DNA of 64,000 nt from Ruminococcus callidus ATCC 27760 (GTDB lineage Bacteria; Bacillota; Clostridia; Oscillospirales; Ruminococcaceae), in NCBI RefSeq assembly GCF_000468015.1, contig NZ_KI260355.1, positions 1 to 64,000 of the forward strand, given 5' to 3'. How positions within the stretch are numbered: the first letter of the stretch is position 1; every line of letters begins with the position of its first letter. The notes beneath the pieces are model-generated. The model worked only from the letters and a program-made list of their open reading frames with translations. It was not told where the DNA came from and made no database searches. The position numbers were made by a program, and so were the translations under genes. Positions 5,171 to 55,448 of the stretch are shown one piece after another.

Positions 5171-5206
5171 TTATTTTACTTATGTAAAATCTTTCTTCAT
5201 TCGCTT

Positions 5207-7337: not shown

Positions 7338-7375
7338 AATTATTCCTCATTTCTTTTATTTTATAGGAGTGTATA

Positions 7376-9847: not shown

Positions 9848-9849
9848 AG

Positions 9850-10809: not shown

Positions 10810-11033
10810 TACCAACCACCTTCCTATTTTATGTGAATCATCATAAAGAGAAAATTAACACATGATAATTTGAAGTTATCCTGCGTTGAGTTTTGATAAT
10901 ACTATTATACACCCATTTTTCTTCAAAATCAACATAATCTCGCAGATTTTTCCAAGAAATTCATCGACACTATTCGACAAAAAGCGTATTACAATATATA
11001 ATAGAATTATTCCCAAACGAAGGAGTAGCTATC

Positions 11034-12130: not shown

Positions 12131-15100
12131 TCAACTATTTACTCTGAAATAATCCTCTGCCTGTACAATCGTATTCCAAATCTGCTCATCCTTACAGGGA
12201 TTGATATAATCATCATCAGAAAGCACGCCATACACAGCTTCAAGCTTTTCTTTTACTATCTTTGCATATGAATACATATTACTTTCATAACGTTCCTGCT
12301 TCACTCCTCGGTTACGCATTCGCTGCTGAGAATGATTCATTCGTTCCAAATGATGCATTTGCACAGAACGTCTTGATACAGTTATCTGTGCTAAAAGCTT
12401 TTGCATTTCATCAGATAACTTTACCGCCTCTTCATACTTCTCTACAGCATCCTTCGCAGTATCTATCTTCAATTGATCTTCATAAGAAACTCGATTATTT
12501 CTGTTTTCCGATATATCACGAAGCTGATTTACTGTTTCTTTCAACTCGTTTAGAGAAGCAGACCTTTCTGCAATATTGATATTGGATTCTATCACTCCGA
12601 TATTTTCAAGAAGCCGATTATCCATTTCATCGAAATCAGGCAAAGATTCTCCAAATTCCTGCATATAAGCATCCTGAACAAAATGCATCATTTCTGTATT
12701 TCGCTCCAATACATGAGCCGCTTCAGATATATCAAACTTCTGATCATGATACTGAACACAATTCCTGTAGCGCTCTTTTAGATAAACATTAGATACAACG
12801 CCGTTTTCCAGATCCTTTACATCTGGTTCTATTTTCTCCATCATGTTGTCAGAAATGACCTCTCTTCCCTTCGCCGAATCCTGCATCAACGTTTTCTGTA
12901 CTGACCATTCATGACTGTATTCCTTTCCAAGCGCAACAAAGTCAATACTTAACTGCATATACAATTCACTTGGATTCGCTGATAATCTTGCTGCTAATCT
13001 GCGAATGAAGAACAAGGATGCAACCGATGTGATGACACCCTTTACAAGCTGAAGTACCCCTTCACCGAGCATTCCGGCAAACTGCACTGCTGCCTGAGCC
13101 ACTGAAAGTGCTGCTTCTGCAACATAAATAGATGCATAAAGCACTCCTTTTGCAATTTCATATCCTGCTATTTCACATCCGATAATCGGCGCATAAAATA
13201 TTTTTTTGAACCATCCCATATTGCGGAGTCTATTCCTGCATGCATCTATCTGATGATCCAGGTATGAGATTTCATCGTACAATTTCCGTACCTTTGTTTT
13301 TGCATCTTCCAGTGATTGCGTTGCGTCATTAATTTTCTTTCTGCAAACTTCGATCGCATGATTCAATCGATCTTTTACCTTTGTCAGTGTTTCTTCTAAT
13401 TTGTATGTATCAAAAGAAAACTGAAAATCAAAGTTCAACGATTGAAAACTCTGATAGTTCACATTCAAAGAAAGATGCGTTGTCATGCCCCAGAATGTAC
13501 TTTCCAGATTGATAATGATCAAGCCTTTTTGATAATACAATTGTGCCTGTTTTTCCGTCAATCCAGCTATTGATATTTTACCGTCAAAATAAAATGACAC
13601 ATCATTTTGAGATGCTTGCAGATAAAATGCAACGCCTTTCGCTGTCGTATCCAGAAATTGTGACAGAACGCTGTTTTCCGGAATTGGGATAGGATTTTCC
13701 TGTTGAAAATCAGAGGATGTAATTTTGATTATTCCCAAATCAATATCCGACAGCATGCCAAACGCCAGTGCACCTTCCTGCTGACGGAATGAAAACAAAA
13801 CTTTCAAAGACAATTGAAACACACAAATTTTTGCACAAAAGAATATTCCCGCACTGACAACCATGCCGTTACCAATTGTGAAGGGTTCTGCCACATCTGA
13901 ATAATAAAATTGTGGACGCAGATACAAAACACCGTCTGCATCCACATAATAATGACGCATTCTATATTTATCCACAAGCGCATATCCATCATCCTGCGGT
14001 ATTCGTCCTATAGAAATTGTATTTACATCAATCGAAAGCTGAGATGCCGTAATATTATCATTAAAAAATGCTGCAATCTGCGATAAATCAGTCTTTTCAA
14101 ACCATTCCATCTGAAATTTATTTCTACATTCAAAATCAAAGTAGTCGATAGAAATAATATCAAGTGCTTTGATACCTGGAATCAAAAGACCCGTGATGTT
14201 TTCAATCAAATCCGATATGGAAAGTCGACTGGTAGCAAAACATAATAATTGCGGTTTTAAGATTCCATCGTATGAAAACTGCATCGCCGCAAATAGATAC
14301 AACTTTCTTAAATAAATTTCACCGACAATGCCAAATGTCAACCCCTTGTTATATCCAATTGTAAGAGAAGTGTTTCCGAGGTAAAATGCACCGAAAAGAT
14401 TGATTGGTTCTTTCGGAATGGCAGATGCCGACAGCATCAGTGAACTGGAAGATAATTTACAGTCAACGCAAAAAGACATTTCGGAAATTGCCATTAACTG
14501 AAACATCCCGGAGGCCTGAAAGATCGTGTCAGCTTTACCAGTATCCAGTTCCAGAAATAATTCTTGTATGCTGATAATGTCATTAGAGATCTGTGGGACG
14601 GAAAGTACAAAATATGCGCCTTGCTGTCCTTTTCCCGCGAAAAAGGACAGATTTTCTATACCAAGCAGCTCATGAAAAAACAGGTCCAGCAGCCCATTGC
14701 ATTCCTGTGAAAAGTAATATTCGGAATACAAACAAAAACTGTTTTTTTCGTAGAATCTGGAAGGAGGCAGCAATGTTTCCGTATTATGAAAAGTTTCTAA
14801 CAGCCTGCCAATATTGACCGGCTGCAATCCTTTGGAAATATACAGATAAAAATTATCAATGCCAATCAGACGCTTGGCATTTGCGATAAGTTCTGCAACG
14901 AACCCTGAACTCTCTTGTTCTGAAATTTCACATAAGAATCCGCTGCCAGAGTAACTTCCATCTGAATTTTTTAATCGAATCGCTGTAACACGGAACGACT
15001 GCATATCCACAAAAAACATCTCATGATCATAAGCATAACTGAAACGCAATTCAGCAGATCTATGTGTCAGAAAATCCGGAAGAAGTGTGTGTAATTCATC

Positions 15101-15298
15101 AGACAGCTTAGAATCAATCAATGCAACGATTGCAGTCATATCAGCATTGTTGATATTCAAATTCCCTTGAAAACAGCTTTCGCCATGCAGTACACTGTAT
15201 GATGCCGCTGCTTCATAGCCCAGTATCGTTCCACGAACACCAACGCTCATGGAAAATGTTTTTTCTTCCATTGAATTCACCATATCGGATTTTTTCAT
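12131..15298 (-). CDS. 1,055-residue beta-rich/coiled-coil protein, unknown function
   Basis: I do not recognise the family. Residues 1-640 are predicted mostly beta strand, with repeated amphipathic segments (MSVGVRGTILGYEAAASYSV, AFYLGNTSLTIGYNKGLTFG). Residues about 650-700 form a coiled coil (VKDRLNHAIEVCRKKINDAT). Residues about 720-790 are small-residue-rich hydrophobic helices that could enter a membrane (IAGYEIAKGVLYASIYVAEA). The remainder is charged coiled coil (ENIGVIESNINIAERSASLN). There is no signal peptide. The N-terminus resembles the start of the upstream 169-residue protein, to which it is directly coupled. A TTG at 15301 is an alternative start. Possible roles are a large structural, lipid-binding or pore-forming protein. 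Confidence 0.6.
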   Translation of the reverse strand: MKKSDMVNSMEEKTFSMSVGVRGTILGYEAAASYSVLHGESCFQGNLNINNADMTAIVALIDSKLSDELHTLLPDFLTHRSAELRFSYAYDHEMFFVDMQSFRVTAIRLKNSDGSYSGSGFLCEISEQESSGFVAELIANAKRLIGIDNFYLYISKGLQPVNIGRLLETFHNTETLLPPSRFYEKNSFCLYSEYYFSQECNGLLDLFFHELLGIENLSFFAGKGQQGAYFVLSVPQISNDIISIQELFLELDTGKADTIFQASGMFQLMAISEMSFCVDCKLSSSSLMLSASAIPKEPINLFGAFYLGNTSLTIGYNKGLTFGIVGEIYLRKLYLFAAMQFSYDGILKPQLLCFATSRLSISDLIENITGLLIPGIKALDIISIDYFDFECRNKFQMEWFEKTDLSQIAAFFNDNITASQLSIDVNTISIGRIPQDDGYALVDKYRMRHYYVDADGVLYLRPQFYYSDVAEPFTIGNGMVVSAGIFFCAKICVFQLSLKVLFSFRQQEGALAFGMLSDIDLGIIKITSSDFQQENPIPIPENSVLSQFLDTTAKGVAFYLQASQNDVSFYFDGKISIAGLTEKQAQLYYQKGLIIINLESTFWGMTTHLSLNVNYQSFQSLNFDFQFSFDTYKLEETLTKVKDRLNHAIEVCRKKINDATQSLEDAKTKVRKLYDEISYLDHQIDACRNRLRNMGWFKKIFYAPIIGCEIAGYEIAKGVLYASIYVAEAALSVAQAAVQFAGMLGEGVLQLVKGVITSVASLFFIRRLAARLSANPSELYMQLSIDFVALGKEYSHEWSVQKTLMQDSAKGREVISDNMMEKIEPDVKDLENGVVSNVYLKERYRNCVQYHDQKFDISEAAHVLERNTEMMHFVQDAYMQEFGESLPDFDEMDNRLLENIGVIESNINIAERSASLNELKETVNQLRDISENRNNRVSYEDQLKIDTAKDAVEKYEEAVKLSDEMQKLLAQITVSRRSVQMHHLERMNHSQQRMRNRGVKQERYESNMYSYAKIVKEKLEAVYGVLSDDDYINPCKDEQIWNTIVQAEDYFRVNS

Positions 15299-15301
15299 CA
15301 A

Positions 15302-15811
15302 TTAAAATGAATCAGGTGTTATCAATGCCATTTTTTCCAGCACAGTCTGACGCTGCGTATTCCAGATATTGAAGCTTAAACTGTCGATCTGGAATATCTT
15401 GATTTCCTTTGGAATCAAACCTTCTGCATTGATTTGCAGTGAAAGTGCGTATTCGACTGTCTTTTCTTCCGTTTCGCCGTTTTTCTTTGATTCAATATTC
15501 AAGAAGAGCATTTTCAAGCAGAACTTGACAGAATCAAAATCAATTGCATTCACAACCTGAGGATCTTCCTCTTCTGCAATCTTGCTCTTAACATCATCTT
15601 CAGAAAGAGCGCCTTCGCCTGCCATGCCGTTAAACTGACCAATCATTTCCTTCAGTGTAAGCTGTACGTCATTGGAAACATTCGCAGGTGCCAGGAAAAT
15701 CTGATAGCCGTCTGCTGTCTTTTTGTAATAGGAACTCAGATCTACTCCCATAAATGTAAATTTCAATCCCACGGATAACTGTACCTTTTCTGTTACTTGT
15801 AAATTTTTCAT
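15302..15811 (-). CDS. Small protein related to the N-terminus of its giant neighbour
   Basis: The start at 15811 (MKNLQVTEKVQ) is set by a GGAGGT site 7 bases upstream; a longer frame begins five codons earlier inside that site. The 169-residue product has VQLSVGLKFTFMGVDLSSYY near its start, which resembles FSMSVGVRGTILGYEAAASY of the next gene. The C-terminal part is probably beta-rich (VEYALSLQINAEGLIPKEIK, SLSFNIWNTQ). The next gene follows with no gap, so the products are likely made together. The function is unknown. It may be a soluble partner or a separate copy of the giant protein's first domain. Confidence 0.6.
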   Translation of the reverse strand: MKNLQVTEKVQLSVGLKFTFMGVDLSSYYKKTADGYQIFLAPANVSNDVQLTLKEMIGQFNGMAGEGALSEDDVKSKIAEEEDPQVVNAIDFDSVKFCLKMLFLNIESKKNGETEEKTVEYALSLQINAEGLIPKEIKIFQIDSLSFNIWNTQRQTVLEKMALITPDSF

Positions 15812-15826
15812 ATGAATTACCTCCAT

Positions 15827-16228
15827 TCATTTTCCGATCCAACTCATTCTAGCCGCTTTTACCGCACACCTCAATTGTATATTTTTTCCTGGTCCGCTGC
15901 TGTTACAACCTCTGCATAATGGAACTATATAAAATTCCTCATCGGGCTGCAAAGCCTGTGTAGGCTGTGATAAGACAACATGCGCTCCAACGAGATCATC
16001 TGGATGGCTTGATGTGCAATGCTGATTGCAGCATTGTCCGCCAATTTGTATTGTACTGGAGCCAGTTAACACTTCCCATGCATTAATCATCGTTGAATCG
16101 TACTCAATTCCTTCGTATATCACTTTATCTCCTGAACTACCTATTGCATTATACAAAGGCAGTCCATATCCTAACACCTCAACTTCCACATATTCCGATT
16201 TAAGTTCCATATTGTTTTCTTTGTTCAT
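15827..16228 (-). CDS. HNH-like zinc protein
   Basis: The 133-residue protein has an AAAGGAAAG site before its ATG. The C-terminal half carries CCNQHCTSSHPDDLVGAHVV followed by FYIVPLCRGCNSS: two Cys pairs around a GAHV segment. This is the pattern of a short zinc-bound HNH/treble-clef module found in many small bacterial proteins, where the His of GAHV and the PLC..CN segment form the core. The N-terminus (VEVEVLGYGLPLYNAI) is probably beta. It sits between the secreted dockerin protein and the two unknown proteins in what looks like one transcript. Nuclease activity is possible but unproven. Confidence 0.6.
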   Translation of the reverse strand: MNKENNMELKSEYVEVEVLGYGLPLYNAIGSSGDKVIYEGIEYDSTMINAWEVLTGSSTIQIGGQCCNQHCTSSHPDDLVGAHVVLSQPTQALQPDEEFYIVPLCRGCNSSGPGKNIQLRCAVKAARMSWIGK

Positions 16229-16271: not shown

Positions 16272-18386
16272 TTATATTATCCTGCCATATACCTTTTTGA
16301 TCATATCTGCAAAAGTGAATTTCCCTGATACTATATCATTTAGAGAATTGTAATCATTGCTATCAATTTTGCCATCATAGTTAACATCAGCGTTCACAAG
16401 ATTAATACTTGAATTTCCACCATTCAGATAATTGTTTAATATGGAAAGATCTGAACTGTTTGTAACACCATCCATATTCACATCGCCCCTGTTATAATTG
16501 GACTTATAACACTGCGCTAAATAAGCCTCACTCTCTTGACTAACAACTCTTGTACCATCTGCATCACAATAGTAACTATATGTACCAGGAATAATATAAC
16601 CATCATACTGCCCTTCAGGAGTCCCATTATACCATTCATTTTGATATGTCATAGCAAATGATTCTGGGTTTGAATTTGTGCATTCCACAAAGTACCATTG
16701 ATTATATAACTTTATACCTACTAATGCATGCCCAGGAGCGCTGATAAGCTGAACGTCATCCTTTGTAAAACCTGATTTTAGTAAAAGCAAAATATAAGAT
16801 CTTGACATACCGGCACAAGCACCTTTTCCAGAAACAAGTGCATATGCTGTTTGAGGCATAGAATAAGAAGCATCATACCGAATGAGATTGGACGCCAACT
16901 GGCTGTGAATATATTTTGCAACTTCATATTTCGCATTTTCTTTTGCATTGCCAGATAGTCCACTAATATTCCAATTCACATTTGCAGATTTACTTTTCAA
17001 ATTATTGTATACTTGGGTTACTTTGGCATCCACATCTGGTTTAATTAATTTCGCACCGCCTATACAGTATTGAAAATGAGAAATGAATTCTCTATCTGCC
17101 ATATCAGCAGGAACCGTAATATCAGTAAGATTATTACATCCAGTAAATAAATATCCTCCGCTCTGCGCACATGAAACGTTTTTAGAGACTGTTAATTTCT
17201 TCAAATTGGCACAACCATTAAACGACCAACTTTCCAGGGTTGTAATATTATTGGACATGATTACCTGATATACATTAGAACTGCTAAATGCTCCTGTTGC
17301 AATTTTGGTAACATTTCTTCCTAAAATTGTATCTGGGATTGTAACTGTTACATTATCACTGGCATTAGCGTTTGCATTATATTTTGTTATTGTTGCATTG
17401 CGATCTTTTATAGGAATCTCATAATCCAATCTGTATTGTGAATTGTTTACAGAGCCTTTAATTACAGTATCAAGATGGTAATTAAAGTGGTCGATGAACG
17501 TCTGATCTATCATATTTTCAGGAACATATACAGTTTCGATACTAGTGCTATTATAAAATAAATAACCACCAGATTTTTCTGAACTCAAATTTCTGGATAA
17601 TGTTACCGTTTTTAAGTTCGAACAAGTAGAAAATGAATAATCACCCAATGAAATTACAGTATCCGGCATTACAATAGACGATATTCCATCGCAACAGTAA
17701 AAAGCAAATTTTCCAATTGATGTTACATTATACCCATTAATAGTACTTGGAATTATAACTCCTACAGCTGATGCACTCGTAGTTTTTGTAAAACTAGTAA
17801 TTTCAATCTGATGATCTGAGATTTTATAGTCCAGCTTATACGCTGAAGTAACTGATGAACCTTGTACCACAGTATTAGTATAATAATTAAAGTGATCAAC
17901 GAACGAAGGATCTGCCATGTTTTCGGGAACATTTACAATTTCAATATTTTTACTTTTATAAAACAGGTAACCGCCTGATTTTTCTGAACTCAAATTTTTA
18001 GATAACGTCACCGTTTTTAATTTTGAGCAATTATAGAAAGAATAATTTCCTAAAGAAACAACCGTATCAGGTATTATAACAGAGGATATATCTTTTCCAC
18101 TGAATGCGTATGCACCAATTGATGTTACACTACATCCATTGATTTTACTTGGAATTACAACACTTACAGATGATGCACTGGATGTCTTTGTAAAATTGGT
18201 TATCTCAATGTTATTATCCACCGTTTTATAATTTAATTGATATCCAGAACCTATATAGGTTGCCTCTACATCAGCTGCCGATACCTCAATAGAATTCATT
18301 CTTATTATGGGATTTTCAGCGAAAGTCATACTGCATGTCCCTAGGACTGTAACCGCAAGGATTGCTGCTAATTTTTGTGATTTCAT
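16272..18386 (-). CDS. Secreted LRR_5/transglutaminase-like protein with dockerin
   Basis: The 704-residue protein has an AAGGAG site and a signal peptide (KLAAILAVTVLGTCSMTFAE). Three repeats of about 110-130 residues follow (about 40-445), each with BspA-type LRR_5 strands and a SGGYLF segment, for example TLSKNLSSEKSGGYLFYKS. Next is a transglutaminase-like domain (about 455-610) with Cys in GKGACAGMSRSY and His in GHALVGIKLYN; the third position reads WYFVECTN, Glu where Asp is usual. The C-terminus is a type-I dockerin (GDVNMDGVTNSSDLSILNNY and ADVNYDGKIDSNDYNSLND). It is probably exported and attached to a cohesin. It heads the operon and lies downstream of two LytTR-type boxes. Confidence 0.85.
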   Translation of the reverse strand: MKSQKLAAILAVTVLGTCSMTFAENPIIRMNSIEVSAADVEATYIGSGYQLNYKTVDNNIEITNFTKTSSASSVSVVIPSKINGCSVTSIGAYAFSGKDISSVIIPDTVVSLGNYSFYNCSKLKTVTLSKNLSSEKSGGYLFYKSKNIEIVNVPENMADPSFVDHFNYYTNTVVQGSSVTSAYKLDYKISDHQIEITSFTKTTSASAVGVIIPSTINGYNVTSIGKFAFYCCDGISSIVMPDTVISLGDYSFSTCSNLKTVTLSRNLSSEKSGGYLFYNSTSIETVYVPENMIDQTFIDHFNYHLDTVIKGSVNNSQYRLDYEIPIKDRNATITKYNANANASDNVTVTIPDTILGRNVTKIATGAFSSSNVYQVIMSNNITTLESWSFNGCANLKKLTVSKNVSCAQSGGYLFTGCNNLTDITVPADMADREFISHFQYCIGGAKLIKPDVDAKVTQVYNNLKSKSANVNWNISGLSGNAKENAKYEVAKYIHSQLASNLIRYDASYSMPQTAYALVSGKGACAGMSRSYILLLLKSGFTKDDVQLISAPGHALVGIKLYNQWYFVECTNSNPESFAMTYQNEWYNGTPEGQYDGYIIPGTYSYYCDADGTRVVSQESEAYLAQCYKSNYNRGDVNMDGVTNSSDLSILNNYLNGGNSSINLVNADVNYDGKIDSNDYNSLNDIVSGKFTFADMIKKVYGRII

Positions 18387-18591: not shown

Positions 18592-18654
18592 ATCATAAAA
18601 ACAAAAAAATCAATACTTTTGCACTAAATGGTCGTTTTTCAGCATTGTTTGGTC
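18592..18654 (-). promoter_or_regulatory. LytTR-type direct repeat A and possible -10
   Basis: On the plus strand CTAAATGGTC (18624-18633) is repeated as TTGTTTGGTC (18645-18654) with a 21-bp period, that is one 9-10 bp half-site per two helical turns. This geometry is typical of LytTR-family activators such as AgrA. A TATGAT that could be a -10 lies at 18592-18597 on the minus strand. It points to the secreted-protein operon starting at 18386. The half-site matches the one in front of agrD. Confidence 0.6.
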
Positions 18655-18691
18655 AATTTTCACCATATTTTACCATAATAATTCTATTTAA

Positions 18692-18976: not shown

Positions 18977-19009
18977 CACTAAATGGTCATTTTTTTACGT
19001 TAAATGGTC
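18977..19009 (-). promoter_or_regulatory. LytTR-type direct repeat B
   Basis: AAATGGTC at 18981-18988 is repeated at 19002-19009 with a period of exactly 21 bp, embedded in CACTAAATGGTC and CGTTAAATGGTC. It is the best-conserved of the two boxes upstream of the secreted-protein operon and closely resembles the agrD box (CGTCAAATGGTC twice). It lies about 590 bp before that operon's start, so it may act from a distance, drive an unannotated transcript, or be left over from the duplication. Confidence 0.55.
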
Positions 19010-19013
19010 AATT

Positions 19014-19756: not shown

Positions 19757-19767
19757 AAAAAGCTCCT

Positions 19768-45472: not shown

Positions 45473-45769
45473 TTACAACATTTTATTAAAACGGTAAATC
45501 AAAATAAGGTCACATATCAATGGGAGCAAGTACATGTAAATCAATCCACTGCAAATCATTTTGATATTTTCAGTAGTAACATTCTCAAATAATGATCCAA
45601 TAAAAACGATTCCTATAGCAGGGCACATAAAGCTTTTAATAACCATTATTATTTTCTTCTTGTAGTCAATTTCGGAAAAAGTGATTTTGAAAATCAAAAC
45701 AATCATTAAAATTAAATTTACTACCGGAACAAATGCCATTTTTGTCTTTTTCAACACAAATATCACCAT
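45473..45769 (-). CDS. Small membrane protein, candidate immunity for the main RHS toxin
   Basis: The 98-residue protein is almost entirely hydrophobic, with about three membrane helices (VPVVNLILMIVLIFKITF; KSFMCPAIGIVFIGSLF; LIYMYLLPLICDLILIY). Its start overlaps the last codons of the giant RHS gene by 7 bp, ensuring coupled synthesis. Position suggests that it protects against the RHS tip, perhaps because that tip acts at the membrane. Confidence 0.55.
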   Translation of the reverse strand: MVIFVLKKTKMAFVPVVNLILMIVLIFKITFSEIDYKKKIIMVIKSFMCPAIGIVFIGSLFENVTTENIKMICSGLIYMYLLPLICDLILIYRFNKML

Positions 45770-48700
45770 CTCAATTCAAGATTTACTCCAAACACATCAG
45801 CAACACCAACTTTAACGCCCTTTTTACTTGCAGTTAATGTTGCCCCTGCAGCCATCCAATTTAAACCTAATGTAATGTCTAGATCACCTAGTTTCAATGT
45901 CGCAGAAGGAGACCAAAAAGATACCATTGCTGAAGCTTCAATTCCATCTGTTGACACACCAGCAGCAGCTTCTGCTGTCCCCATATCAAATAAGGAAAGT
46001 TCAAAGTGCTCCCATTCCCAACCACCTGTCATTGCTGAAAAGCTATGTTTACCAGCACTTAGCCCCCAACTATTAGAATCTGGAGAATATCCTAACACTG
46101 GACTGCTTTCCTGCTCATAAGCAAATACTTGACTATGAAAAGGACCGTCATATATTTTTCCCCTTTGATCATCATACAATGAATATGTTCCATCATCATT
46201 ATAATAATCTTTAAGAGCAGGATAAGGGCCGTATTGATCAGGATATTCCATGTAGACATCCTGTGGCATTGCTTCTATACTTGTTGGAGGTAGATATTCT
46301 GCTGGATTAGAAACATCATAATTATATATGTTATAAGACGAGTTCCATTCTTGTGCCCATTCCGGAATATATTTGTTTCCACTTGGATCAATTAAAAAAA
46401 TAGGATTATTACAACAGTATGTATAAAGATTCAAACTCAAAGGGTCTGTATTTTTACCTGTATAACTATCCCTTGAAATAAACCGTCCAATAGAAGCCTG
46501 ATAGTATCTTGCTCTGAGGTAGATTGTTCCGGTTTCTGTATCGAAATACTCACCGCAGAATCGGAATACATTTACATCTCCTGTGTCCGGATTTATCTCC
46601 ACGCCAAACGCATCATACGTATACGACTTCGCAACCGCACCAGTTTCATCGGTCAGGTTCACAATATCGCCATGGGCATTCTGCGTATAGTACTGATAAT
46701 CCGTCTTGACATTGCCGCTCTGCTTGCTGAATTTCGCCAGCAGATTTGTACCACGAACATAAACCTCAGCGCTGTACCAGTCGCTGTCATCCATGTCCAC
46801 AACAATCTGCTTGTTGCCGTCCCAGATATGATTGATTGTCTTGCCGTCGACTGTCTTACTCGTCCGCAGTCCATCTGCGTTATATTTATAACTCGCTGTT
46901 GTCTCTCCATCGGTAAATCCGATCAGCTGATTCAAACCGTCATAAGTATTTATCTCTGTCTTACTCTCTGCGGTTTTTGTGATCTGATTTCCGTTGGCAT
47001 CATAGGAATATACCGTTTCTTTTGTACCGGTGTCTGCGGTAGAGTTGGTAATCAGCTCTGTGGGGCTGGCTGCCAGTCCATTGGCAGTTGTAGCACTGGA
47101 AGTTTCCTCGACTGTCTTGGTTTCCTTTTGCAGCAAGGCGGTATAATTACCGTTTGCATCATTGTAATCATAAACAGTCTCATATTCTTCCGTACCAGTA
47201 GCCGTCATCTTGGAACGGTTGCCGTAGTCATCATACTCATACGCATAGGTGTCCATTGTTGTGCCATTGGAAACTGATTCTTCCGTCAGCCGTTTCAACC
47301 CATCATACTCGTAGGATGTTGTCTCTATTATACCACTTTCATTGCGTACTTTGCAAGCATCTGAACCATCTAAATAGTACGAATATTCATAACTGGATAT
47401 GTCGGAGTTTCCAGACTTGGTAACAAGTTTTGTCACCTTGTTGCATCCATTATAAGAATAGGTCGATACCACACCATTTGCAAGTGTTTCAGAAACCTTA
47501 TTGCCATTTGCATCATAGGTATAAGTTGCAGTCAAATTACCGCTTTCCTTTACCTGAGCAATACGCATTTCAGCATCGTATTCATATTGCGTGGAGGAAT
47601 ACATTGTTTGATGATTAATACCAACCAGCTGCTCCTTCGCATACTGAGATACACCCTCGTAGAAATAGCCCTTAAAAGATTTTGGGCTAAGTTCCTGATA
47701 AACACGTCCCAAGGAATCGTACTGATAACTTGTCTGTACACCATTGGCAGTTTTACTCCGCACTCTTCCCATATTGTCGTAAACATAAGATTTCGATACA
47801 TTTTTGGAAGTATCACTGCAAACAGTATTTGCTGTCAACACACGATTCAGAGCGTCATAGGTGTTGGTCGTCACATTGCCGTTGGCATCAGTTGATGTCA
47901 GCACATTGCCATTCAGATCATAGGTTGTTGCACCAGAGTTATAGCCTGTGCTGTCAGTCGTTCTTACCAAATGTCCCCACGCATCATATTCATAATTCGT
48001 GGTCATGTAGTCAGAATCATTTGCACTGTTCAGACCGGTTTCCATCTTGGTTTGAATACCGCCATTGTTGTAGAAATACTTGGTGATATTCTTTTCAGAA
48101 GATCCTGTTCCGCTGAGTGTTACCTGTGTCAGCAACCCCTGTGCATTGTACTGATTTTCAGTTACACTATACTTTACTGTATCCGAATCCTGCTTTTGAA
48201 CAGTTTGCTTTGCCAGCGTTACATTGCCATTCTTGTCATACTGATTTTCCGTTACAGAGTAGTTGACAGAACCATCTGATTTAGTGTTGAACGGTGTGTA
48301 AGTCTTAGTAACCTTGTTCAGATAACCGTATTCATATTTCGTGATGTTGCCCAATGCATCTGTCTGACGAGCAAGCTGCCCGTTGGCATAGTATGCACTA
48401 GTCCGCTTAGTTTCACCATTTGTTTTTTCGTAAATTGTATGTTCCTTGATATCGGTCAGCGTTTCGGAAATAACCTGTTTGTCCTCGGTAATGTAGGTTG
48501 TTTTGGTTGTTTTCAGTCCCTTACAGGAGTGAGAAGCTGATGTATCAAGAGCCGTATAAATGTCGAAATTGTACCCTGCAAATTCATAGGATGTTGCAGT
48601 AAGAATCTGCTTGATTCCGTTTTCGCCTGCTTGGAAATAGGTTGCCTTTTCTCTTTGAAGACCATCATACGCCGTCAGATTCATTGTGCCGTCTGGATTG

Positions 48701-51700
48701 GTTTTCTTGATTACCTGTCCATACGCATCATACACATAAGAGGTAACATTACCTTCTGCATTTGTTTCTGATTTTTTGTTTCCGTCCGGATAATAAGTTG
48801 TCAAGCTGCCGTGGCTCTTATCCGCAGAATAATTCGGTGTATACTCCGCAGTTTTGCGGCTCAGCAAATCATATTCTGCAACGGTAGTCGCCGGTGTGCT
48901 TCCCGTTCCGTAATCTCTAGTAACTGTAACATTGTTGAACTTATCGTACTCATATTCCTTTACAGAATAAAGATTTTTGGAAATGTCAAAACTGGTGGTT
49001 TCCTTTGACACTTGAAGTTGTGCATTATACTCATAAGAAACTGTATTTACAACAGTATTTCCATCCTTCAGTGTCTTGGATTTTACCAGTCCTTTTCCAA
49101 CGCCATCCTTGTAGTAATCATACTCAGTTACATTACCTTCGGGGTCGGTTGTAGCACGAATCAACCCTGCAATTCCACTCACATAACTATCAGCATAATA
49201 TTCATGACTCGTGATTGCATAACTTGCCTCATTCGCTGCAAGATACTTCACTGGATCAAAATTGTCTGCTGTAACTGTATTGATATCAGTTTGAGATAAT
49301 GGATGCAGACTGGTTGCTTCTTTCAAAAGCCGAGTTCCATTCGAATCATATGCTTTGATAGTTGCATTCCCAGATTCGTCAACTTCTGCAATAACACTGT
49401 TTTTATCATTGTAATTGGCAAGTGTGTATGTGCCATCTGCATTGGTGGTCTTGATGACATTGCCATTCGCATCACGGTCGTACTTTGTCGTATTACCCAT
49501 GATGTCAACGCTTTCAGACATTTCGTCATACTTGTTTTCGTCATCAATCATGTTATAGGTGATTTTATCTACGTCGTATGTTTGACCATCAGTTTCAACA
49601 GTATTTGTCTTGACGGCATATTTTTCATCATAATCATATGTAAAAGTCTTGATAAGCGTATCGCCATCATACTCTTTCAGTCCTGTTTGTTTCTGTACTT
49701 TATCATAGGTATACACCTGTTTCAGACCAGATGCATTGGTCAGCCAGTTCACAGAACCATTCTCGTTGTACACGATCTGGTCTGTCATTTCATCGTAGCA
49801 GTTGGTGATTTTGCAAAGTCTGCCGTTCCCATCATACTCATATGTTTCAGTACCGCCAGAAACGCTGGTTGCTGATACCAACTGGAAATCATTGTTGTAT
49901 TCGTAAGTGACAGTACGTTCTGCTGTGGTATCTTCTATTTTTGTAATGCGAGAATGTTCTTTATTGCCATTGTAAGTAATCGTGTAAGTTCTGCCTGTGG
50001 AATCCGTTACAATTCTCTGGTTGTTGGACATGGAAGAGATGGTCAGAATATTGCCCTCTGCATCCTTGACCCAATCCAGTTCGCCGTCTGCATTGAAGTG
50101 ATACTGAGACTGAGCGGCATTTGTGATGGTGTATTCATTGCCGGACTTTGTCATGGTGCTGTGTGCATTCAGGCACTCAAATCCGCCGTTTCCATCATCC
50201 TTGAATGTGGTGTTAGATCCATCTGGAAGAACTACCTGATAGTAACCCTGTGCCGGAATTACGATCTTACTCACATCGATATTGAAATCCCAGCCAATAC
50301 CAAAGCTGCCTTCCTCATCACTCATGGAATTGTAAGTGCGGACAAAATCGGAAGTGACACCAGGAGAAGTTACGCTCAAATCTGTAAAAGATTTTGTGTA
50401 ATTGCCAGTTGCAATATGGACACCATCGCCAATCTCCCAGCCCTTACGGTAGAGGGTGTAATCCGGAATATCATACGGGCGGAACCATGGTCTGAACCAG
50501 TAGTTTTCTTCTGTGAAATCATTCAGGAAATAAATACCCTGGCAATAACCTTCTTCATCCACATAGCCAAAATTAAACGTGCGCTCTGTATTCAGCGAAC
50601 CATCTTCATTGTTAATGTAGGTTTCACAGTTGTCCCAAAGAACAGTCTGTTTGCCGCCTGCATAACCAAAATAAATTGTCTGTGTACCAGAAGAATAGAT
50701 AGACTTATCGCCGGAAGCTTCGTTTACTTCCCATGTTGGTCCGAGGAACCAGATATTTCCGGCTGTCCATTTGCCTTCCATGTCAGTCAATGTGATGTAT
50801 GTCCAGTTTCCACCGACCATCAAGGTATCATCGCTATTGGTCAACTCAATTGTATCATAGCAGTTTGCCTGACCAAAATCAAAGCAGTTGCCAATGGCAA
50901 CCATACCGCCGTTCAGATTCATCAGCTGACCGGTATTACCACCCCAGCCATCCGGCGATGCGGTACGAAATACCAGATTATTCTCAATCAGAAGTGCTCC
51001 TCCGTTAATATCCAATGTTGCGCCGTTTCCAGACCAGAATTGCGGCATATCGGTTGTGAAGGACATACAATCTGCAACATAAAGAGCGCAGCCGTTCAGG
51101 TCAAAATTGGTATCATGAAGATTGAAACTGTAGGGGAACATACCGTCTGACAGCATTGTCAGATTTCTCTTAAATGCATGATCCCAGTCCAAACTTCCGG
51201 TTTCTGGTTGAGCATCTGAAAACCAATTAATATCGAAATCGTCAATGATGCCACTGTTGTCCTTATCCATGTATTCATAGTAATTGCTGGAGCGATCTCT
51301 CAATTTAATTTGTTCATTTATTTTGTCAATGCCTTCATTGTAGTCCTCTGCATCTACCTTTCCATCATTTGTATAGTAATGGTTATAGACAAATGCAGGG
51401 GACTCGTAATCCCGTGCTGATTTAACAATGCTGGCAAAATCAGCCAGTTCCGCCTCTGTTGCACCTGTATCTTTCTGTTTTAACTGTAAGTCATAGTAGT
51501 TAATAACTCCGTTATTATCCAAGTCATATTGATATATATCCAACTGGTTCATATCATAGAACTCATTTTCATCGAGTTCTTCATACAATCTATAAAAATA
51601 ATCCCAATCGGCATCGCCTACAATCCCATCTCCATCATGATCCATACTTGGATTAAATCCAGGATCACCACGATAAGCGCCGTAGCAGCTTTGCACATAT

Positions 51701-52428
51701 GCCAAATCGCTGCTATTGATTACATCGTCGCTCCATTGGTTTGCATTGTCCTCATTCCATATCGTATCACCGGGCACAAGTGTTACCGTATCCAGCGAAT
51801 CACCAGAGCCAATCTGGAACGAACCTGTTCCGAAGTCCTTCAGGTAAAACGGCAGATAACCATCGCACTCAAACTTCACATGATGCACGCCGGAGCCAGT
51901 TACAGTTGCAGTGTATTCTTCGCCTTCGGAAACCTCCCAGCTTTCAATTTCATTCCAATCTCCGTCAAAAATACGCACATAAATCGGTGTATTGTCGGAA
52001 GCAGCATGACCGTTTACTGTACCTTTCTGTACTTTACCGGTAATAGTTAAGGCAGATGTATCCTGAACGCCTGTTGCTTCTTTCAAATACTGAATATATG
52101 ATTTTGCAGTGAAATCCCATGTAAAATCAGATGCAGACTCAGTTTCAGCTTCAACCTGTGCTTCTGTTCGGCTGCTATACGTCATGATATTCTGCTCAAC
52201 CGATTCCGGCAGCTCAAAATAATCTACCTCGCCAAGTCCCTTTGTCGCTTCTTCAAATTCTTCCGCCAACTGATCAGCATTTTTCATGCCTTCAATTGCT
52301 TCTGCTGCAGAAGCGATAGTATCCGCGTGCAGAATGCCTTGAGATGCACCGTCACCAAAAACCATGATTTGTCCGACAAACATGAGAGACATGACTCCGG
52401 CTAATGTGCGTGTTAACTTTTTAGCCAT
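45763..52428 (-). CDS. Giant secreted RHS/YD-repeat polymorphic toxin
   Basis: The ATG at 52428 sits 6 bases after AGGAGG, giving 2,221 residues. It has a signal peptide (LAGVMSLMFVGQIMVFGDGA). Dockerin/EF-hand-like Ca loops follow (DHDGDGIVGDADWDYF, DLDNNGVINYYDL, DKDNSGIIDDFDI; about 265-405), then a region of beta strands. A DUF6531-type entry (DGVHIATGNYTKSFTDLSVT) precedes long YD repeats (about 720-1,950) that should form a shell around the C-terminal tip. The core ends at FLIDPSGN near 2,010. The variable tip (about 200 residues; ASAMVSFWSPSATLKLGDLD, AAGATLTASKKGVKVG) is unrecognised. It lies 111 bp after agrB on the same strand and may be quorum-regulated. Confidence 0.85.
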   Translation of the reverse strand: MAKKLTRTLAGVMSLMFVGQIMVFGDGASQGILHADTIASAAEAIEGMKNADQLAEEFEEATKGLGEVDYFELPESVEQNIMTYSSRTEAQVEAETESASDFTWDFTAKSYIQYLKEATGVQDTSALTITGKVQKGTVNGHAASDNTPIYVRIFDGDWNEIESWEVSEGEEYTATVTGSGVHHVKFECDGYLPFYLKDFGTGSFQIGSGDSLDTVTLVPGDTIWNEDNANQWSDDVINSSDLAYVQSCYGAYRGDPGFNPSMDHDGDGIVGDADWDYFYRLYEELDENEFYDMNQLDIYQYDLDNNGVINYYDLQLKQKDTGATEAELADFASIVKSARDYESPAFVYNHYYTNDGKVDAEDYNEGIDKINEQIKLRDRSSNYYEYMDKDNSGIIDDFDINWFSDAQPETGSLDWDHAFKRNLTMLSDGMFPYSFNLHDTNFDLNGCALYVADCMSFTTDMPQFWSGNGATLDINGGALLIENNLVFRTASPDGWGGNTGQLMNLNGGMVAIGNCFDFGQANCYDTIELTNSDDTLMVGGNWTYITLTDMEGKWTAGNIWFLGPTWEVNEASGDKSIYSSGTQTIYFGYAGGKQTVLWDNCETYINNEDGSLNTERTFNFGYVDEEGYCQGIYFLNDFTEENYWFRPWFRPYDIPDYTLYRKGWEIGDGVHIATGNYTKSFTDLSVTSPGVTSDFVRTYNSMSDEEGSFGIGWDFNIDVSKIVIPAQGYYQVVLPDGSNTTFKDDGNGGFECLNAHSTMTKSGNEYTITNAAQSQYHFNADGELDWVKDAEGNILTISSMSNNQRIVTDSTGRTYTITYNGNKEHSRITKIEDTTAERTVTYEYNNDFQLVSATSVSGGTETYEYDGNGRLCKITNCYDEMTDQIVYNENGSVNWLTNASGLKQVYTYDKVQKQTGLKEYDGDTLIKTFTYDYDEKYAVKTNTVETDGQTYDVDKITYNMIDDENKYDEMSESVDIMGNTTKYDRDANGNVIKTTNADGTYTLANYNDKNSVIAEVDESGNATIKAYDSNGTRLLKEATSLHPLSQTDINTVTADNFDPVKYLAANEASYAITSHEYYADSYVSGIAGLIRATTDPEGNVTEYDYYKDGVGKGLVKSKTLKDGNTVVNTVSYEYNAQLQVSKETTSFDISKNLYSVKEYEYDKFNNVTVTRDYGTGSTPATTVAEYDLLSRKTAEYTPNYSADKSHGSLTTYYPDGNKKSETNAEGNVTSYVYDAYGQVIKKTNPDGTMNLTAYDGLQREKATYFQAGENGIKQILTATSYEFAGYNFDIYTALDTSASHSCKGLKTTKTTYITEDKQVISETLTDIKEHTIYEKTNGETKRTSAYYANGQLARQTDALGNITKYEYGYLNKVTKTYTPFNTKSDGSVNYSVTENQYDKNGNVTLAKQTVQKQDSDTVKYSVTENQYNAQGLLTQVTLSGTGSSEKNITKYFYNNGGIQTKMETGLNSANDSDYMTTNYEYDAWGHLVRTTDSTGYNSGATTYDLNGNVLTSTDANGNVTTNTYDALNRVLTANTVCSDTSKNVSKSYVYDNMGRVRSKTANGVQTSYQYDSLGRVYQELSPKSFKGYFYEGVSQYAKEQLVGINHQTMYSSTQYEYDAEMRIAQVKESGNLTATYTYDANGNKVSETLANGVVSTYSYNGCNKVTKLVTKSGNSDISSYEYSYYLDGSDACKVRNESGIIETTSYEYDGLKRLTEESVSNGTTMDTYAYEYDDYGNRSKMTATGTEEYETVYDYNDANGNYTALLQKETKTVEETSSATTANGLAASPTELITNSTADTGTKETVYSYDANGNQITKTAESKTEINTYDGLNQLIGFTDGETTASYKYNADGLRTSKTVDGKTINHIWDGNKQIVVDMDDSDWYSAEVYVRGTNLLAKFSKQSGNVKTDYQYYTQNAHGDIVNLTDETGAVAKSYTYDAFGVEINPDTGDVNVFRFCGEYFDTETGTIYLRARYYQASIGRFISRDSYTGKNTDPLSLNLYTYCCNNPIFLIDPSGNKYIPEWAQEWNSSYNIYNYDVSNPAEYLPPTSIEAMPQDVYMEYPDQYGPYPALKDYYNDDGTYSLYDDQRGKIYDGPFHSQVFAYEQESSPVLGYSPDSNSWGLSAGKHSFSAMTGGWEWEHFELSLFDMGTAEAAAGVSTDGIEASAMVSFWSPSATLKLGDLDITLGLNWMAAGATLTASKKGVKVGVADVFGVNLELRW

Positions 52429-52539
52429 CAATATCCTCCTTTTTAATTTTCATGTTATATACTTTTTTCGACAACCCATGTTTCAAAAAATGCAAGATTT
52501 TATACCCAAAGTATAGATATAAAGCCTTGCATTTTACGT

Positions 52540-53127
52540 TCATATAGTTGTTGTTTTTCTTTTATGATTCATCGCAACACCGATGATAATCATCCATGCT
52601 TCTGTAGACAATCCCAGTACAATTGTTGCGGCAATCTGTTCTTTCAAAAAGATTAAAGAGAATATGCTAGCCGCCGCTTCAATTCCCAGAACAATTCTTG
52701 TTCGCTTACGATACACGTATTGTTCTGTATCATCTAATGGATTATTTTCCGTTTCCACCGGAGCCAGAATCCAGATGACAATACTTGCAACCACAAGTAA
52801 AATAACGGATGCAATCGGATTAATTGGAATCCACTTAATTACCGCAAGCAAAATCGCAATCATGATGGTAGAATTGATATAGCATCGAAAGGGACTGTCT
52901 GCATGATGACCACCAGCGCTGATCCGAATTGGTATGTATGCTGCATTTAACAACATGCAGAGAAGAAGCTTTTGAAACAATATGCCCAACAATAACGTCG
53001 TTATCACGTTCAGAAGCAGCATCATGCCCTGAAAAAATCCGTACACGTACACGTCTGCATCTGCTTCGGAAATAATTCCAGCACAGATTAATTTCCCTGC
53101 AAACCTTTTAGACAAATGTTCCAGCAT
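52540..53127 (-). CDS. agrB: AgrB-type processing/export peptidase
   Basis: The 195-residue membrane protein carries the AgrB core IRISAGGHHADSPFRCYINS, with the catalytic His and Cys, and the downstream PVETENNPLDDTE. Hydrophobic helices surround these (MMLLLNVITTLLLGILFQ; IASVILLVVASIVIWILAPV). AgrB cuts the C-terminal tail of AgrD and forms the thiolactone that becomes the autoinducer. Its ATG overlaps the agrD stop by one base. Confidence 0.95.
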   Translation of the reverse strand: MLEHLSKRFAGKLICAGIISEADADVYVYGFFQGMMLLLNVITTLLLGILFQKLLLCMLLNAAYIPIRISAGGHHADSPFRCYINSTIMIAILLAVIKWIPINPIASVILLVVASIVIWILAPVETENNPLDDTEQYVYRKRTRIVLGIEAAASIFSLIFLKEQIAATIVLGLSTEAWMIIIGVAMNHKRKTTTI

Positions 53128-53279
53128 CAGAATTTACGTAGCTTCTTTACAGACTTCGGCATTTTCGGTTCATAGTCCCACCACATACAAGCCTGTCCGG
53201 CACTGATCTGCGAAGTTTTCTTTGCAGCCATAGCAACACCTGTCAGCAAACTTTTTTTCAAGCTTTTCTTCTCTCGCAT
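53127..53279 (-). CDS. agrD: AgrD-type autoinducer precursor peptide
   Basis: The 50-residue peptide begins MREKKSLKKSLLTGVAMAAK, an amphipathic membrane-binding helix. It continues SQISAGQA, then the predicted signal core CMWWDY, and ends with the acidic/proline recognition tail EPKMPKSVKKLRKF. A Cys followed by four residues and an aromatic, then E-P-x-M-P, is the hallmark of clostridial cyclic lactone autoinducers. The ATG at 53279 is 8 bases after AGGAGG and is preferred; an ATG at 53285 is too close to the site. It is translated with agrB and lies directly behind the LytTR-controlled promoter. Confidence 0.92.
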   Translation of the reverse strand: MREKKSLKKSLLTGVAMAAKKTSQISAGQACMWWDYEPKMPKSVKKLRKF

Positions 53280-53323: not shown

Positions 53324-53393
53324 AGTATACCATGCCTGATTTGGAAATACAAGAGATTTACGTCAAATGGTCGTTTTTTTACGTCAAATGGTC
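53324..53393 (-). promoter_or_regulatory. agrDB promoter with LytTR direct-repeat box
   Basis: ACGTCAAATGGTC occurs twice (53360-53372 and 53381-53393 on the plus strand) with a period of exactly 21 bp. Downstream on the minus strand are TTGTAT (53347-53352) and TATACT (53324-53329) with a 17-bp spacer, and then the agrD ribosome site. An imperfect -35 just past a LytTR direct repeat is the usual layout for activation by phosphorylated AgrA. The same half-site occurs upstream of the secreted-protein operon at 18.6 and 19.0 kb. Confidence 0.8.
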
Positions 53394-53430: not shown

Positions 53431-54714
53431 TCAAGATTTGATCGGAATCGTCACGGAAACCTGAAACAATTCTTCTTTCGTCCTGACGGATACCACACCA
53501 TGGTATTTTTCCACAGTTTTCCGCACATTGGATAAGCCAATTCCCATATGATCCTTTTTGGTGGAATGCCATTGCCGCGGAGAAAGATCCGCTGCTGCCT
53601 GACAAGTATTTGTCATTCGTAGGGCAAGAAGTCCCATCTTCTGACACAAAACCACCTCAATTCGTTTTACCGAACGATCCAGTTCCATACACGCATCTAT
53701 GGCATTATCCAGCAGATTAGAAAAAATTGTCGTGGTATCCATATCGGACAAAAATTCCATGGGAAAATCCTCAATTTCCAGACTGAGCTGAATCGCCTCT
53801 TGTTCACAGCGCCGAGCGGCTGTATTCAGGATTATCTCTAAAATTGCATTCTGATTCCGAATTCTCGGCTGTAGTTGCTTCGCCGCCGCGGACAGATCGG
53901 AAAGATATTGTTCCCCATCCCGTGTGGATTTTCCCGCGATCCATGCCTGTAAGGCTGTAATGTGACGGTTGATATCGTGCGCCGTTTCACATGTCTGCTG
54001 ATAGAGCTTCTGTAATTCCCGGTACATTTGCAGCTGGAGCTGCTGATGCTGCTGCATCAGGTCAGTCTGACGTTCTTTCTCCCGCATTTGAGAAATTTTA
54101 TGGAATATATAAATAATATACAAATCCAGTCCTAAGAATCCCGCTAAAAACAACAGCATAGCCCAACCGGAGGATTTTTCCTGTGCTGTAGCAGAAAAAT
54201 ATGCAAAAATCCCAACTTCAAACAGCACCACCAGCACATAGAACATGACCTCGTGCCACCGGATCTTAAATTGTTCCTTGGAACGAATCAAAATCTTTGC
54301 AATTCTTGTAAGGACGATCTGGAGAATCCAGTTCCAGATATGATGTTGCCAGACAAGCGCTGTAGTTCCTAATGTTATTGAAATTGTATTTTGGTGAAAT
54401 GCTGATACAACAATAACACCCAGTGCATCTGCACTTAATGTGAGCATTGCAAATAACGCTGTATACATAAATAAAGCAGCTTTATTGCAAGAAAACAACA
54501 GCCAAATTATTAGCAAAATAATGCAGCATCCTGAGATAAAATTCAGTGGTGAAATCTGTAAATACACAATTAAAGCTTTTGAAATCACTGCTGCTGTGAT
54601 CAGCAAGATTCGTTTTACCATGTGGGTGGAACGAACAGGATATTTCCCATATAATAAATAAAAGCAAAGAACGACATTCAAAAGTAAAGTCACACAATCT
54701 AAAATATACTGCAT
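53431..54714 (-). CDS. agrC: AgrC-type sensor histidine kinase
   Basis: The 427-residue protein has a six- to seven-helix membrane sensor region (about 1-200, for example FISGCCIILLIIWLLFSCN and WAMLLFLAGFLGLDLYIIYI). A cytoplasmic HPK10-type kinase follows: CETAHDINRHITALQAWI with the phospho-accepting His near residue 245, FSNLLDNAIDACMELD (N box) and MGIGLSNVRKTVEKYHGVVS (G box). It should bind the cyclic peptide made from AgrD and phosphorylate AgrA. It starts 2 bp after the agrA stop. Confidence 0.92.
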   Translation of the reverse strand: MQYILDCVTLLLNVVLCFYLLYGKYPVRSTHMVKRILLITAAVISKALIVYLQISPLNFISGCCIILLIIWLLFSCNKAALFMYTALFAMLTLSADALGVIVVSAFHQNTISITLGTTALVWQHHIWNWILQIVLTRIAKILIRSKEQFKIRWHEVMFYVLVVLFEVGIFAYFSATAQEKSSGWAMLLFLAGFLGLDLYIIYIFHKISQMREKERQTDLMQQHQQLQLQMYRELQKLYQQTCETAHDINRHITALQAWIAGKSTRDGEQYLSDLSAAAKQLQPRIRNQNAILEIILNTAARRCEQEAIQLSLEIEDFPMEFLSDMDTTTIFSNLLDNAIDACMELDRSVKRIEVVLCQKMGLLALRMTNTCQAAADLSPRQWHSTKKDHMGIGLSNVRKTVEKYHGVVSVRTKEELFQVSVTIPIKS

Positions 54715-54716: not shown

Positions 54717-55448
54717 TTAAAAATCTCCATTTGTCATATAACGATTTAACGCATCAAATACTTCTCCATATCTTCTGCGAGAAATCAGAATCACATCGTC
54801 ATTTTCCATGACGAGCTTTTTATTTTTTCCGTCAATCTCCCGAATATGCTGGATGTTTACCAAAAAACTCGGATTCGGCATCAGAAAGTAATCGTGGTTT
54901 ATAATACCATATACATTTGTGATACTGTCTTTGATGATATAATATTCTTTTCGCATTTGCACCCGAACCGTGCGATCCTGCACATAGCAAAAATAATAAA
55001 TATCAGACATTTCTACATATTTACAGGAGTTCTCTGTTGACAGCTGAAAATATTCCTTGGGCATCGCATTTGTAATGCTGCGCTGGAAACTAAGATACTC
55101 ATCCAGCACTTGAAAAATTGCAACTTTCTCCGTCGGTTTTGTCAGATATGCAAAAGGGTGAATTGTCATTGCCTTCTGGATATAGCTGTCGTAGGATGTG
55201 ATATAGATCAGCGCAACCCACTTATTCCAGGCACGCAGTCGTTGCGCGGTTTCAATCCCATTAATGCCATTCATCTGAATATCCAGAAATGCGACATCGA
55301 TCGGGATATTACATGACAATAGATCTTCACCACAAAAAAATGGAAAAATCCGGTATTCCAGATTTCTTTCCTGAAAAAAAACTGACACACAGGTTGAGAG
55401 CATTACAACCTGTTCTTTTTCATCATCCACAATAGCAATCCGAATCAT
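54717..55448 (-). CDS. agrA: AgrA-type LytTR response regulator
   Basis: The 243-residue protein has a receiver domain (IRIAIVDDEKEQVV with the acidic pair, AFLDIQMNGINGIE with the phospho-accepting Asp, and TKP) and a LytTR DNA-binding domain (FQLSTENSCKYVEMSDIYYF; LMPNPSFLVNIQHIREIDGK; DDVILISRRRYGEVFDALNR). LytTR domains bind 9-bp direct repeats spaced two turns apart, matching the boxes in this window. The gene order agrA-agrC-agrD-agrB differs from the staphylococcal B-D-C-A. Confidence 0.93.
   Translation of the reverse strand: MIRIAIVDDEKEQVVMLSTCVSVFFQERNLEYRIFPFFCGEDLLSCNIPIDVAFLDIQMNGINGIETAQRLRAWNKWVALIYITSYDSYIQKAMTIHPFAYLTKPTEKVAIFQVLDEYLSFQRSITNAMPKEYFQLSTENSCKYVEMSDIYYFCYVQDRTVRVQMRKEYYIIKDSITNVYGIINHDYFLMPNPSFLVNIQHIREIDGKNKKLVMENDDVILISRRRYGEVFDALNRYMTNGDF

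What the first reader, a model, noticed from the sequence alone, without database searches (positions are those of the whole stretch)
12131..16228. Operon of a 1,055-residue unknown protein, its short relative and an HNH-like protein, under predicted quorum control
The 169-residue and 1,055-residue proteins share an N-terminal pattern (SVG...T..G......Y), suggesting that one domain exists alone and within the giant. The giant adds a long beta region, small-residue hydrophobic helices and coiled coils. Co-transcription with a zinc HNH-like protein and a secreted transglutaminase protein is unusual and could form a surface or contact-dependent system.
Basis: partly seen in the sequence, partly recalled or inferred. 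Interest (0 to 1): 0.65.

Follow-up and report, generated by a model that had tools for sequence, protein, structure and literature searches.

The report
Undescribed quorum-linked giant and short proteins
In gut Clostridia a roughly 1,050-residue protein of no described family is always encoded next to a small partner protein, often with a protease, wall- or lipid-cutting enzymes and quorum-type regulators nearby, which suggests an undescribed density-controlled, membrane-acting weapon or lysis device.

Summary
The operon is real: secreted LRR/transglutaminase-like/dockerin protein, HNH-like protein (133 aa), short protein (169 aa) and giant (1,046-1,055 aa), minus strand. Short and giant have no credible match in Pfam, NCBIfam, PHROGs, PADLOC or PDB sequences. 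I found 15 loci in Clostridia; wherever DNA is readable the two are adjacent, and 12 of 12 genomes searched held one credible short gene. A C11 (clostripain) peptidase follows in 9 of 13 loci readable downstream, sometimes with lysozyme, PI-PLC or M23. In near relatives the HNH-like gene is upstream, once fused to short. The quorum claim is well supported: LytTR-type direct repeats of 21-bp period occur (at most one mismatch) twice in the 3.1-Mb genome, before this operon and before agrDB, which is followed by an RHS toxin-like gene; LytTR genes flank the pair in other loci. The giant's model is a long amphipathic beta-belt plus helices, loosely like ApoB100. The claimed shared N-terminal domain is not statistically supported. 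Best guess: a density-controlled, membrane-acting antagonism module; mechanism unproven.

The parts
12131..15298 (-). giant protein (1,055 aa from ATG 15298; relatives align from ATG 15271)
   Evidence: ORF, start codons, 14 relatives, predicted beta-belt plus helices
15302..15811 (-). short protein (169 aa), obligate partner gene of the giant
   Evidence: GGAGG before ATG 15811; relatives directly before the giant in all readable loci, one credible copy per genome
15827..16228 (-). HNH-like protein (133 aa); relatives stand alone in L009 and are fused to short in L010/L012
   Evidence: no Pfam family at E 10
16272..18386 (-). secreted BspA-type LRR / transglutaminase-like / dockerin protein, first gene of the operon; neighbour in this window only
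   Evidence: PF13306 and PF00404 above cut-off, Transglut_core below cut-off; hydrophobic N-terminus
18979..19008 (-). LytTR-type direct repeat ACCATTTAACGTAAAAAAATGACCATTTAG (period 21 bp) upstream of the operon
18625..18653 (-). second, degenerate copy of the repeat, inside a 63-nt element (18597-18659) duplicated from 18952-19014
53363..53392 (-). matching LytTR-type direct repeat upstream of agrD/agrB
   Evidence: (1 mismatch)
53127..53279 (-). AgrD-like peptide gene (50 aa)
   Evidence: read directly; no family test made
52540..53127 (-). AgrB
   Evidence: PF04647 E 7.4e-40
53431..54714 (-). AgrC-like sensor kinase (GHKL domain)
   Evidence: PF14501 E 1.6e-20
54717..55448 (-). AgrA-like response regulator with LytTR domain; related to the regulators beside the pair in L011 and L035
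   Evidence: PF04397 E 8.7e-15; clustering
45763..52431 (-). RHS/DUF6531 toxin-like protein (2,222 aa) directly behind agrB; putative co-regulated gene
   Evidence: PF05593 E 3.7e-52, PF20148 E 5.3e-12

Best explanation
Short and giant form an undescribed two-protein unit: a long amphipathic beta-belt with amphipathic helices (giant) and a dedicated partner (short). It most likely acts at or in membranes as part of a density-controlled antagonism module. At high density AgrA (LytTR) switches on this operon together with the agrDB-RHS genes. The giant-short complex then associates with a lipid bilayer and delivers, or lets out, companion proteins that work outside the cytoplasm: the HNH-like protein here, and in relatives lysozyme, PI-PLC or M23 peptidase, with an exported C11 peptidase processing the complex or its cargo. 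Shown by sequence: the obligate pairing, the operon, the LytTR-type sites and neighbouring LytTR genes, the recurrent degradative neighbours, the absence of signal peptides on all companions but C11, and an HNH-like/short fusion. Inferred: AgrA binding, membrane association, delivery or release, and antagonism as the purpose.
For: Short-giant pairing in 14 of 14 loci where the gene before the giant is readable, one credible short gene per genome in 12 of 12. LytTR-type repeat at no more than 1 mismatch only before this operon and before agrDB, with agrC, LytTR-type agrA and an RHS/DUF6531 gene alongside. LytTR genes directly beside the pair in L011, L014, L017, L035 against a base rate of about ten per genome. 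C11 after the giant in 9 of 13 loci readable downstream; PI-PLC, GH24 lysozyme or M23 in L007, L018, L034. HNH-like/short fusion in L010/L012. Two-faced strands, moment 0.41 against 0.22 sd 0.025 in shuffles; hydrophobic amphipathic 67-residue helix; ApoB100 and beta-barrel proteins as closest solved folds.
Against: No immunity gene, secretion machine or variable toxin domain was identified. The giant model is of middling confidence (pLDDT 70.6, pTM 0.46) and alternating hydrophobicity is also found in soluble beta-proteins. Lysozyme, PI-PLC and M23 occur in only a few loci; the window clade has no C11. No companion is universal, so cargo is a guess. The HNH-like protein lacks a family match.
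Confidence: 0.33

Rival explanations
1. Programmed self-lysis or release cassette: the giant perturbs the producer's own membrane at high density so that signal-less lysozyme, M23, PI-PLC, HNH-like or RHS proteins escape, working like a holin-endolysin pair.
For: GH24 lysozyme without signal peptide between giant and C11 in L034 and behind PI-PLC in L018; M23 in L007; quorum-type control; hydrophobic helix in the giant.
Against: A wall hydrolase is present in only 3 loci; a 1,050-residue belt is unlike any known holin; L019, a near-complete scaffold, has no lytic gene next to C11.
Confidence: 0.2
2. Lipid carrier or lipid-particle coat: the giant is a bacterial beta-belt that wraps or channels lipid (works like ApoB or bridge-like lipid transfer proteins), short is its partner, and PI-PLC acts on the lipid.
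For: ApoB100 is the best solved match (Foldseek E 5e-6; VIA Z 11.9 with 329 residues aligned, rmsd 14.7 A); amphipathic strands and helices; PI-PLC in two loci.
Against: TM-score only 0.11; porins and receptors score Z 8-10; PI-PLC rare; LytTR, C11 and the RHS link are not explained.
Confidence: 0.18
3. Surface or contact assembly: giant and short end up on the cell surface by an unknown route and are processed there by the C11 peptidase, next to a secreted LRR/transglutaminase-like adhesin.
For: C11 peptidases carry N-terminal signal/anchor segments, and clostripains are implicated in processing of surface proteins (PMC3482391); the first gene of the window's operon is secreted.
Against: Short and giant lack signal peptides and any known surface anchor; the LRR gene is not conserved; C11 is missing in the window clade.
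Confidence: 0.12
4. Anti-phage defence component, as the genes lie in TIR-rich islands in two genomes.
For: TIR/ThsB-like genes 6-12 kb away in the window, TIR- and SIR2-like genes around L011.
Against: Only one marginal PADLOC hit (JetA over 32 residues of short, E 7.5e-4), none for the giant; other loci lie beside housekeeping genes such as arg and cob genes.
Confidence: 0.07

Closest known systems
Apolipoprotein B100 beta-belt (large lipid transfer proteins)
   Same: Long meandering sheet of two-faced beta strands followed by long helices; best solved match of the giant
   Different: No sequence similarity, no vitellogenin-type N-terminal module found, TM 0.11, bacterial and cytosolic start, tied to LytTR and C11 genes
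Agr quorum sensing / LytTR regulons (AgrA, SilA, VirR type)
   Same: Paired direct repeats of 21-bp period before the target operon and before agrDB; SilA's site is two 10-bp repeats with an 11-bp spacer (PMC2766830); agrBDCA genes present
   Different: The target operon encodes an undescribed giant-short pair; AgrA binding not shown
Polymorphic toxin systems (RHS type; PMC3482391)
   Same: Quorum-type site shared with an RHS/DUF6531 gene; companions of the lytic, peptidase and HNH-like kinds; an HNH-like relative near an RHS gene in L055
   Different: The giant is conserved to its end, with no swapped C-terminal toxin domain, no trafficking domain and no recognised immunity gene
Holin-endolysin lysis cassettes
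   Same: Signal-less GH24 lysozyme or M23 next to a gene for a membrane-prone protein in three loci
   Different: Giant rather than small membrane protein; lysin absent in most loci; not in a phage
Clostripain (C11) peptidase operons
   Same: C11 gene over Pfam's cut-off after the giant in nine loci
   Different: I know of no description of a short-giant pair with C11; the library search found none

Membership tests
Agr/LytTR regulon | Paired direct repeats with about 21-bp period, shared with agrDB | tested here: met
   18979-19008 (0 mismatches) and 53363-53392 (1 mismatch), only two such sites in the genome
Agr/LytTR regulon | Binding and activation by AgrA | not testable with these tools
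   needs gel shift or reporter
Polymorphic toxin (RHS/CDI/LXG type) | Conserved N-terminal part with variable C-terminal toxin domain | tested here: not met
   Giants align along the whole length, including coiled-coil C-termini
Polymorphic toxin (RHS/CDI/LXG type) | Known trafficking, repeat or toxin domain in the giant | tested here: not met
   No Pfam or NCBIfam match above cut-off
Polymorphic toxin (RHS/CDI/LXG type) | Immunity gene next to the toxin | tested here: inconclusive
   No recognised immunity family, but most are unknown
ApoB / large lipid transfer protein | Vitellogenin-type N-terminal lipid module by sequence | tested here: not met
   No Pfam match in 11 giants
ApoB / large lipid transfer protein | Amphipathic beta-belt fold | tested here: inconclusive
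   Foldseek E 5e-6 but TM 0.11; VIA Z 11.9 with rmsd 14.7 A
HNH nuclease (15827-16228) | Match to an HNH family | tested here: not met
   No Pfam, NCBIfam or PHROGs match
HNH nuclease (15827-16228) | HNH-type His, Asn and zinc cysteines | tested here: inconclusive
   GxHV and C..(H/C)N conserved in three relatives; the first cysteine pair is lost in L009/L012
Holin-endolysin cassette | Wall hydrolase encoded with the pair | tested here: inconclusive
   Present in L007, L018, L034 only
Known anti-phage defence system | Match of the core proteins to PADLOC models | tested here: not met
   None for giant, HNH-like or C11; one marginal 32-residue JetA hit for short
Peptidase C11 (downstream gene in relatives) | PF03415 above gathering score | tested here: met
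   Nine loci; absent next to the pair in the window clade

The most novel reading that the evidence does not exclude
A new kind of bacterial protein-delivery or release device: a lipid-belting giant with a small adaptor that carries signal-less lytic and nuclease-like companions across a membrane, switched on by Agr/LytTR quorum sensing, with the HNH-like/short fusion as direct cargo loading.
Probability: 0.15. Interest if true: 0.9.

Novelty: categorically new. Interest (0 to 1): 0.6.

Why it matters
An obligate two-gene unit of this size, in gut Clostridia, with no known family and wired to quorum sensing, an exported peptidase and lytic enzymes, points to an unrecognised way in which these bacteria act on neighbours, on themselves or on lipids. 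Relatives sit in named isolate genomes (Clostridium sp. DSM 8431, Lachnospiraceae bacterium A2), so the question can be tested directly. 'Categorically new' here means that no tested family contains it, not that a new mechanism has been shown.

Tried and rejected
(1) Short domain nested in the giant: rejected as a sequence claim. (2) DUF6603-type giant, recalled from memory: no Pfam match, no paper in the library. (3) DUF2589 (PF11655) upstream in L018 as a partner: absent from nearly all other genomes. (4) Viral, phage or plasmid origin: no relatives in IMG/VR, INPHARED or PLSDB. (5) Two weak extra hits of the short profile in G932 and G926 (E 0.009, 0.04): lie in unrelated-looking genes. (6) My impression that the 224-aa gene upstream of short in L034 looks like a ribosome-inactivating protein: no support in Pfam or PDB sequences. 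(7) Fold of the short protein: best VIA Z 5.3 (CapZ, then leviviral coat), no Foldseek hit under 0.001. (8) Giant against viral predicted structures: nothing under 0.001. (9) Coiled-coil Pfam/PDB hits of the giant (HrpB7, prefoldin, myosin): taken as compositional. (10) C11 gene elsewhere in the window's genome (contig 196): ordinary setting, no link seen.
Full report
OBSERVATION. The short gene starts at ATG 15811 behind GGAGG. The giant has an ATG at 15298 (1,055 aa), but relatives align from ATG 15271. The HNH-like gene ends 15 bp before the short start. The LRR/transglutaminase-like/dockerin gene (16272-18386; PF13306 and PF00404 above cut-off, transglutaminase core below cut-off) ends 43 bp before the HNH-like gene. 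No minus-strand terminator-like site lies between genes, so one operon is likely.

RELATIVES. Short and giant match nothing credible in Pfam, NCBIfam, PHROGs, PADLOC or PDB sequences; only coiled-coil-type hits and one marginal 32-residue JetA hit appear. Relatives were found only in Clostridia: 11 loci in GTDB contigs (L010 and L012 are near-identical), plus genomes G181 (the same contig as L011), G020, G1208, G1066 and G1029. The family is rare: 4 of 248 genomes of the window's family matched, one of them only weakly (E 3.5e-4), and 6 of 299 in the family around Lachnospiraceae bacterium A2, two of them weakly. No relative turned up in viral, phage or plasmid collections. The short gene lies directly before the giant in every locus where that DNA is readable, and 12 of 12 genomes searched hold one credible short gene. 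The giant tree has a window clade (window, L009, L011, L012; support 100/100) and deeper Lachnospiraceae and Clostridium branches.

NEIGHBOURS. Blast clustering of all ORFs around 15 loci gives giant in 15, short in 14, C11 peptidase in 9. C11 follows the giant directly in most of these (behind a LytTR gene in L017, behind a lysozyme gene in L034), all over Pfam's cut-off. In G020 it is the genome's only C11 gene. PI-PLC follows C11 in L007 and L018; a phage-type lysozyme (GH24) lies in L034 and L018; M23 in L007. The window clade has no C11 next to the pair, nor has L035; instead, in the window clade, an HNH-like gene precedes short in the window and L009 and is fused to short in L010/L012 (397 aa). 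All nine C11 proteins have a hydrophobic N-terminus; short, giant, HNH-like, lysozymes, PI-PLCs and M23 do not. So C11 is probably exported by Sec and the others are not.

REGULATION. The promoter region carries ACCATTTAACGTAAAAAAATGACCATTTAG (18979-19008, minus strand), a direct repeat of 21-bp period, within a 63-nt element that occurs again 355 bp away. In the whole 3.1-Mb genome the repeat occurs at no more than one mismatch only here and at 53363-53392 (at two mismatches the reversed control pattern gives 19 hits against 13, so only the 0-1 mismatch hits mean anything). The second copy precedes an AgrD-like peptide gene and agrB, with agrC and a LytTR-type agrA next to them. Behind agrB lies a 2,222-aa RHS/DUF6531 gene. 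LytTR-type regulators bind paired direct repeats; SilA's are two 10-bp repeats with an 11-bp spacer (PMC2766830). In relatives LytTR genes lie directly beside the pair in L011, L014, L017 and L035 and two genes away in L034; the L011 and L035 regulators are relatives of the window's AgrA. With about ten LytTR genes per genome, four directly flanking genes in about 13 loci is far more than the roughly 0.1 expected (rough estimate, about 2,500 genes per genome assumed).

STRUCTURE. AlphaFold2 on 11 sequences gives mean pLDDT 70.6 and pTM 0.46 for the giant (best at about 230-510, where most blocks are near 80-90): a long antiparallel beta meander, then long helices including a 67-residue hydrophobic helix, a three-strand sheet and a helical end. 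The strands are strongly two-faced: mean hydrophobic moment 0.41 against 0.22 (sd 0.025) in shuffles. Foldseek's best solved match is ApoB100 (E 5e-6) and its VIA Z is 11.9, above porins and receptors at 8-10; but TM is 0.11 and rmsd about 15 A or more. This supports a belt-like sheet, not homology. The short model (pLDDT 72) has no useful match. The claimed shared N-terminal domain is not significant; only the order of elements (three strands, helices, strands) is alike.

INTERPRETATION. Shown: a rare, obligate two-gene unit of unknown family, quorum-type regulation, recurrent association with a peptidase and other degradative enzymes, and an HNH-like/short fusion. Inferred: action at membranes, and a role in antagonism or release. 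The link to an RHS gene behind agrDB argues for conflict between bacteria; companions that act on wall or lipid yet lack signal peptides argue that something other than Sec lets them out, either delivery or lysis. I put 0.33 on the antagonism module, 0.2 on programmed lysis or release, 0.18 on lipid handling, 0.12 on a surface assembly and 0.07 on anti-phage defence.

LIMITS. Fifteen loci, many on short MAG contigs; no expression data; no complex prediction; companions vary. The LRR/transglutaminase-like protein is a neighbour only in the window. The paper library holds open-licence papers only, so a description elsewhere cannot be excluded.

Noticed in passing
window 214-6244 (-): Four genes with ThsB-like/TIR matches, one of them also with SLOG-type domains (PADLOC ThsB models; Pfam): a multi-TIR, Thoeris-like island next to the operon.
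   Followed up: partly
window 45763-55448 (-): agrB, an AgrD-like peptide, agrC and agrA, with a 2,222-aa RHS/DUF6531 gene directly behind agrB and another RHS fragment at 44060-45430: a quorum-controlled RHS toxin-like locus.
   Followed up: partly
L055 7609-8289 (+): A stand-alone relative of the HNH-like protein on a contig with an RHS-repeat protein and transposase fragments, in a genome where no giant was found in the class scan.
   Followed up: partly
window 11034-11951 (+) and L013 496-1320 (+): Related XerC-like tyrosine recombinases border the pair in two different genomes: behind the giant in the window, before short in L013.
   Followed up: no
window 6384-10815: SbnA-like PLP enzyme (-), AAA/TPR protein (+) and ATP-grasp ligase (-): possible small-molecule genes between the TIR island and the operon.
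   Followed up: no
window 19289-20877 (-): Amidoligase next to an AIG2-like gamma-glutamyl cyclotransferase, a pair that suggests a peptide-modifying unit.
   Followed up: no
window 39689-39785 (-): pemK RNA motif (RF02913), 61.3 bits.
   Followed up: no
L034 3411-5087 (-): STAS protein, anti-sigma-type ATPase and an HD-CE protein directly behind the C11 gene: a possible partner-switching regulator.
   Followed up: no
C-termini of the giants in L007 and L014-L018: A short basic tail ending like Y(T/K/Q/S)(E/D/T)(R/K)(L/I) at the very C-terminus, missing in the window clade; may be a docking or targeting signal.
   Followed up: no
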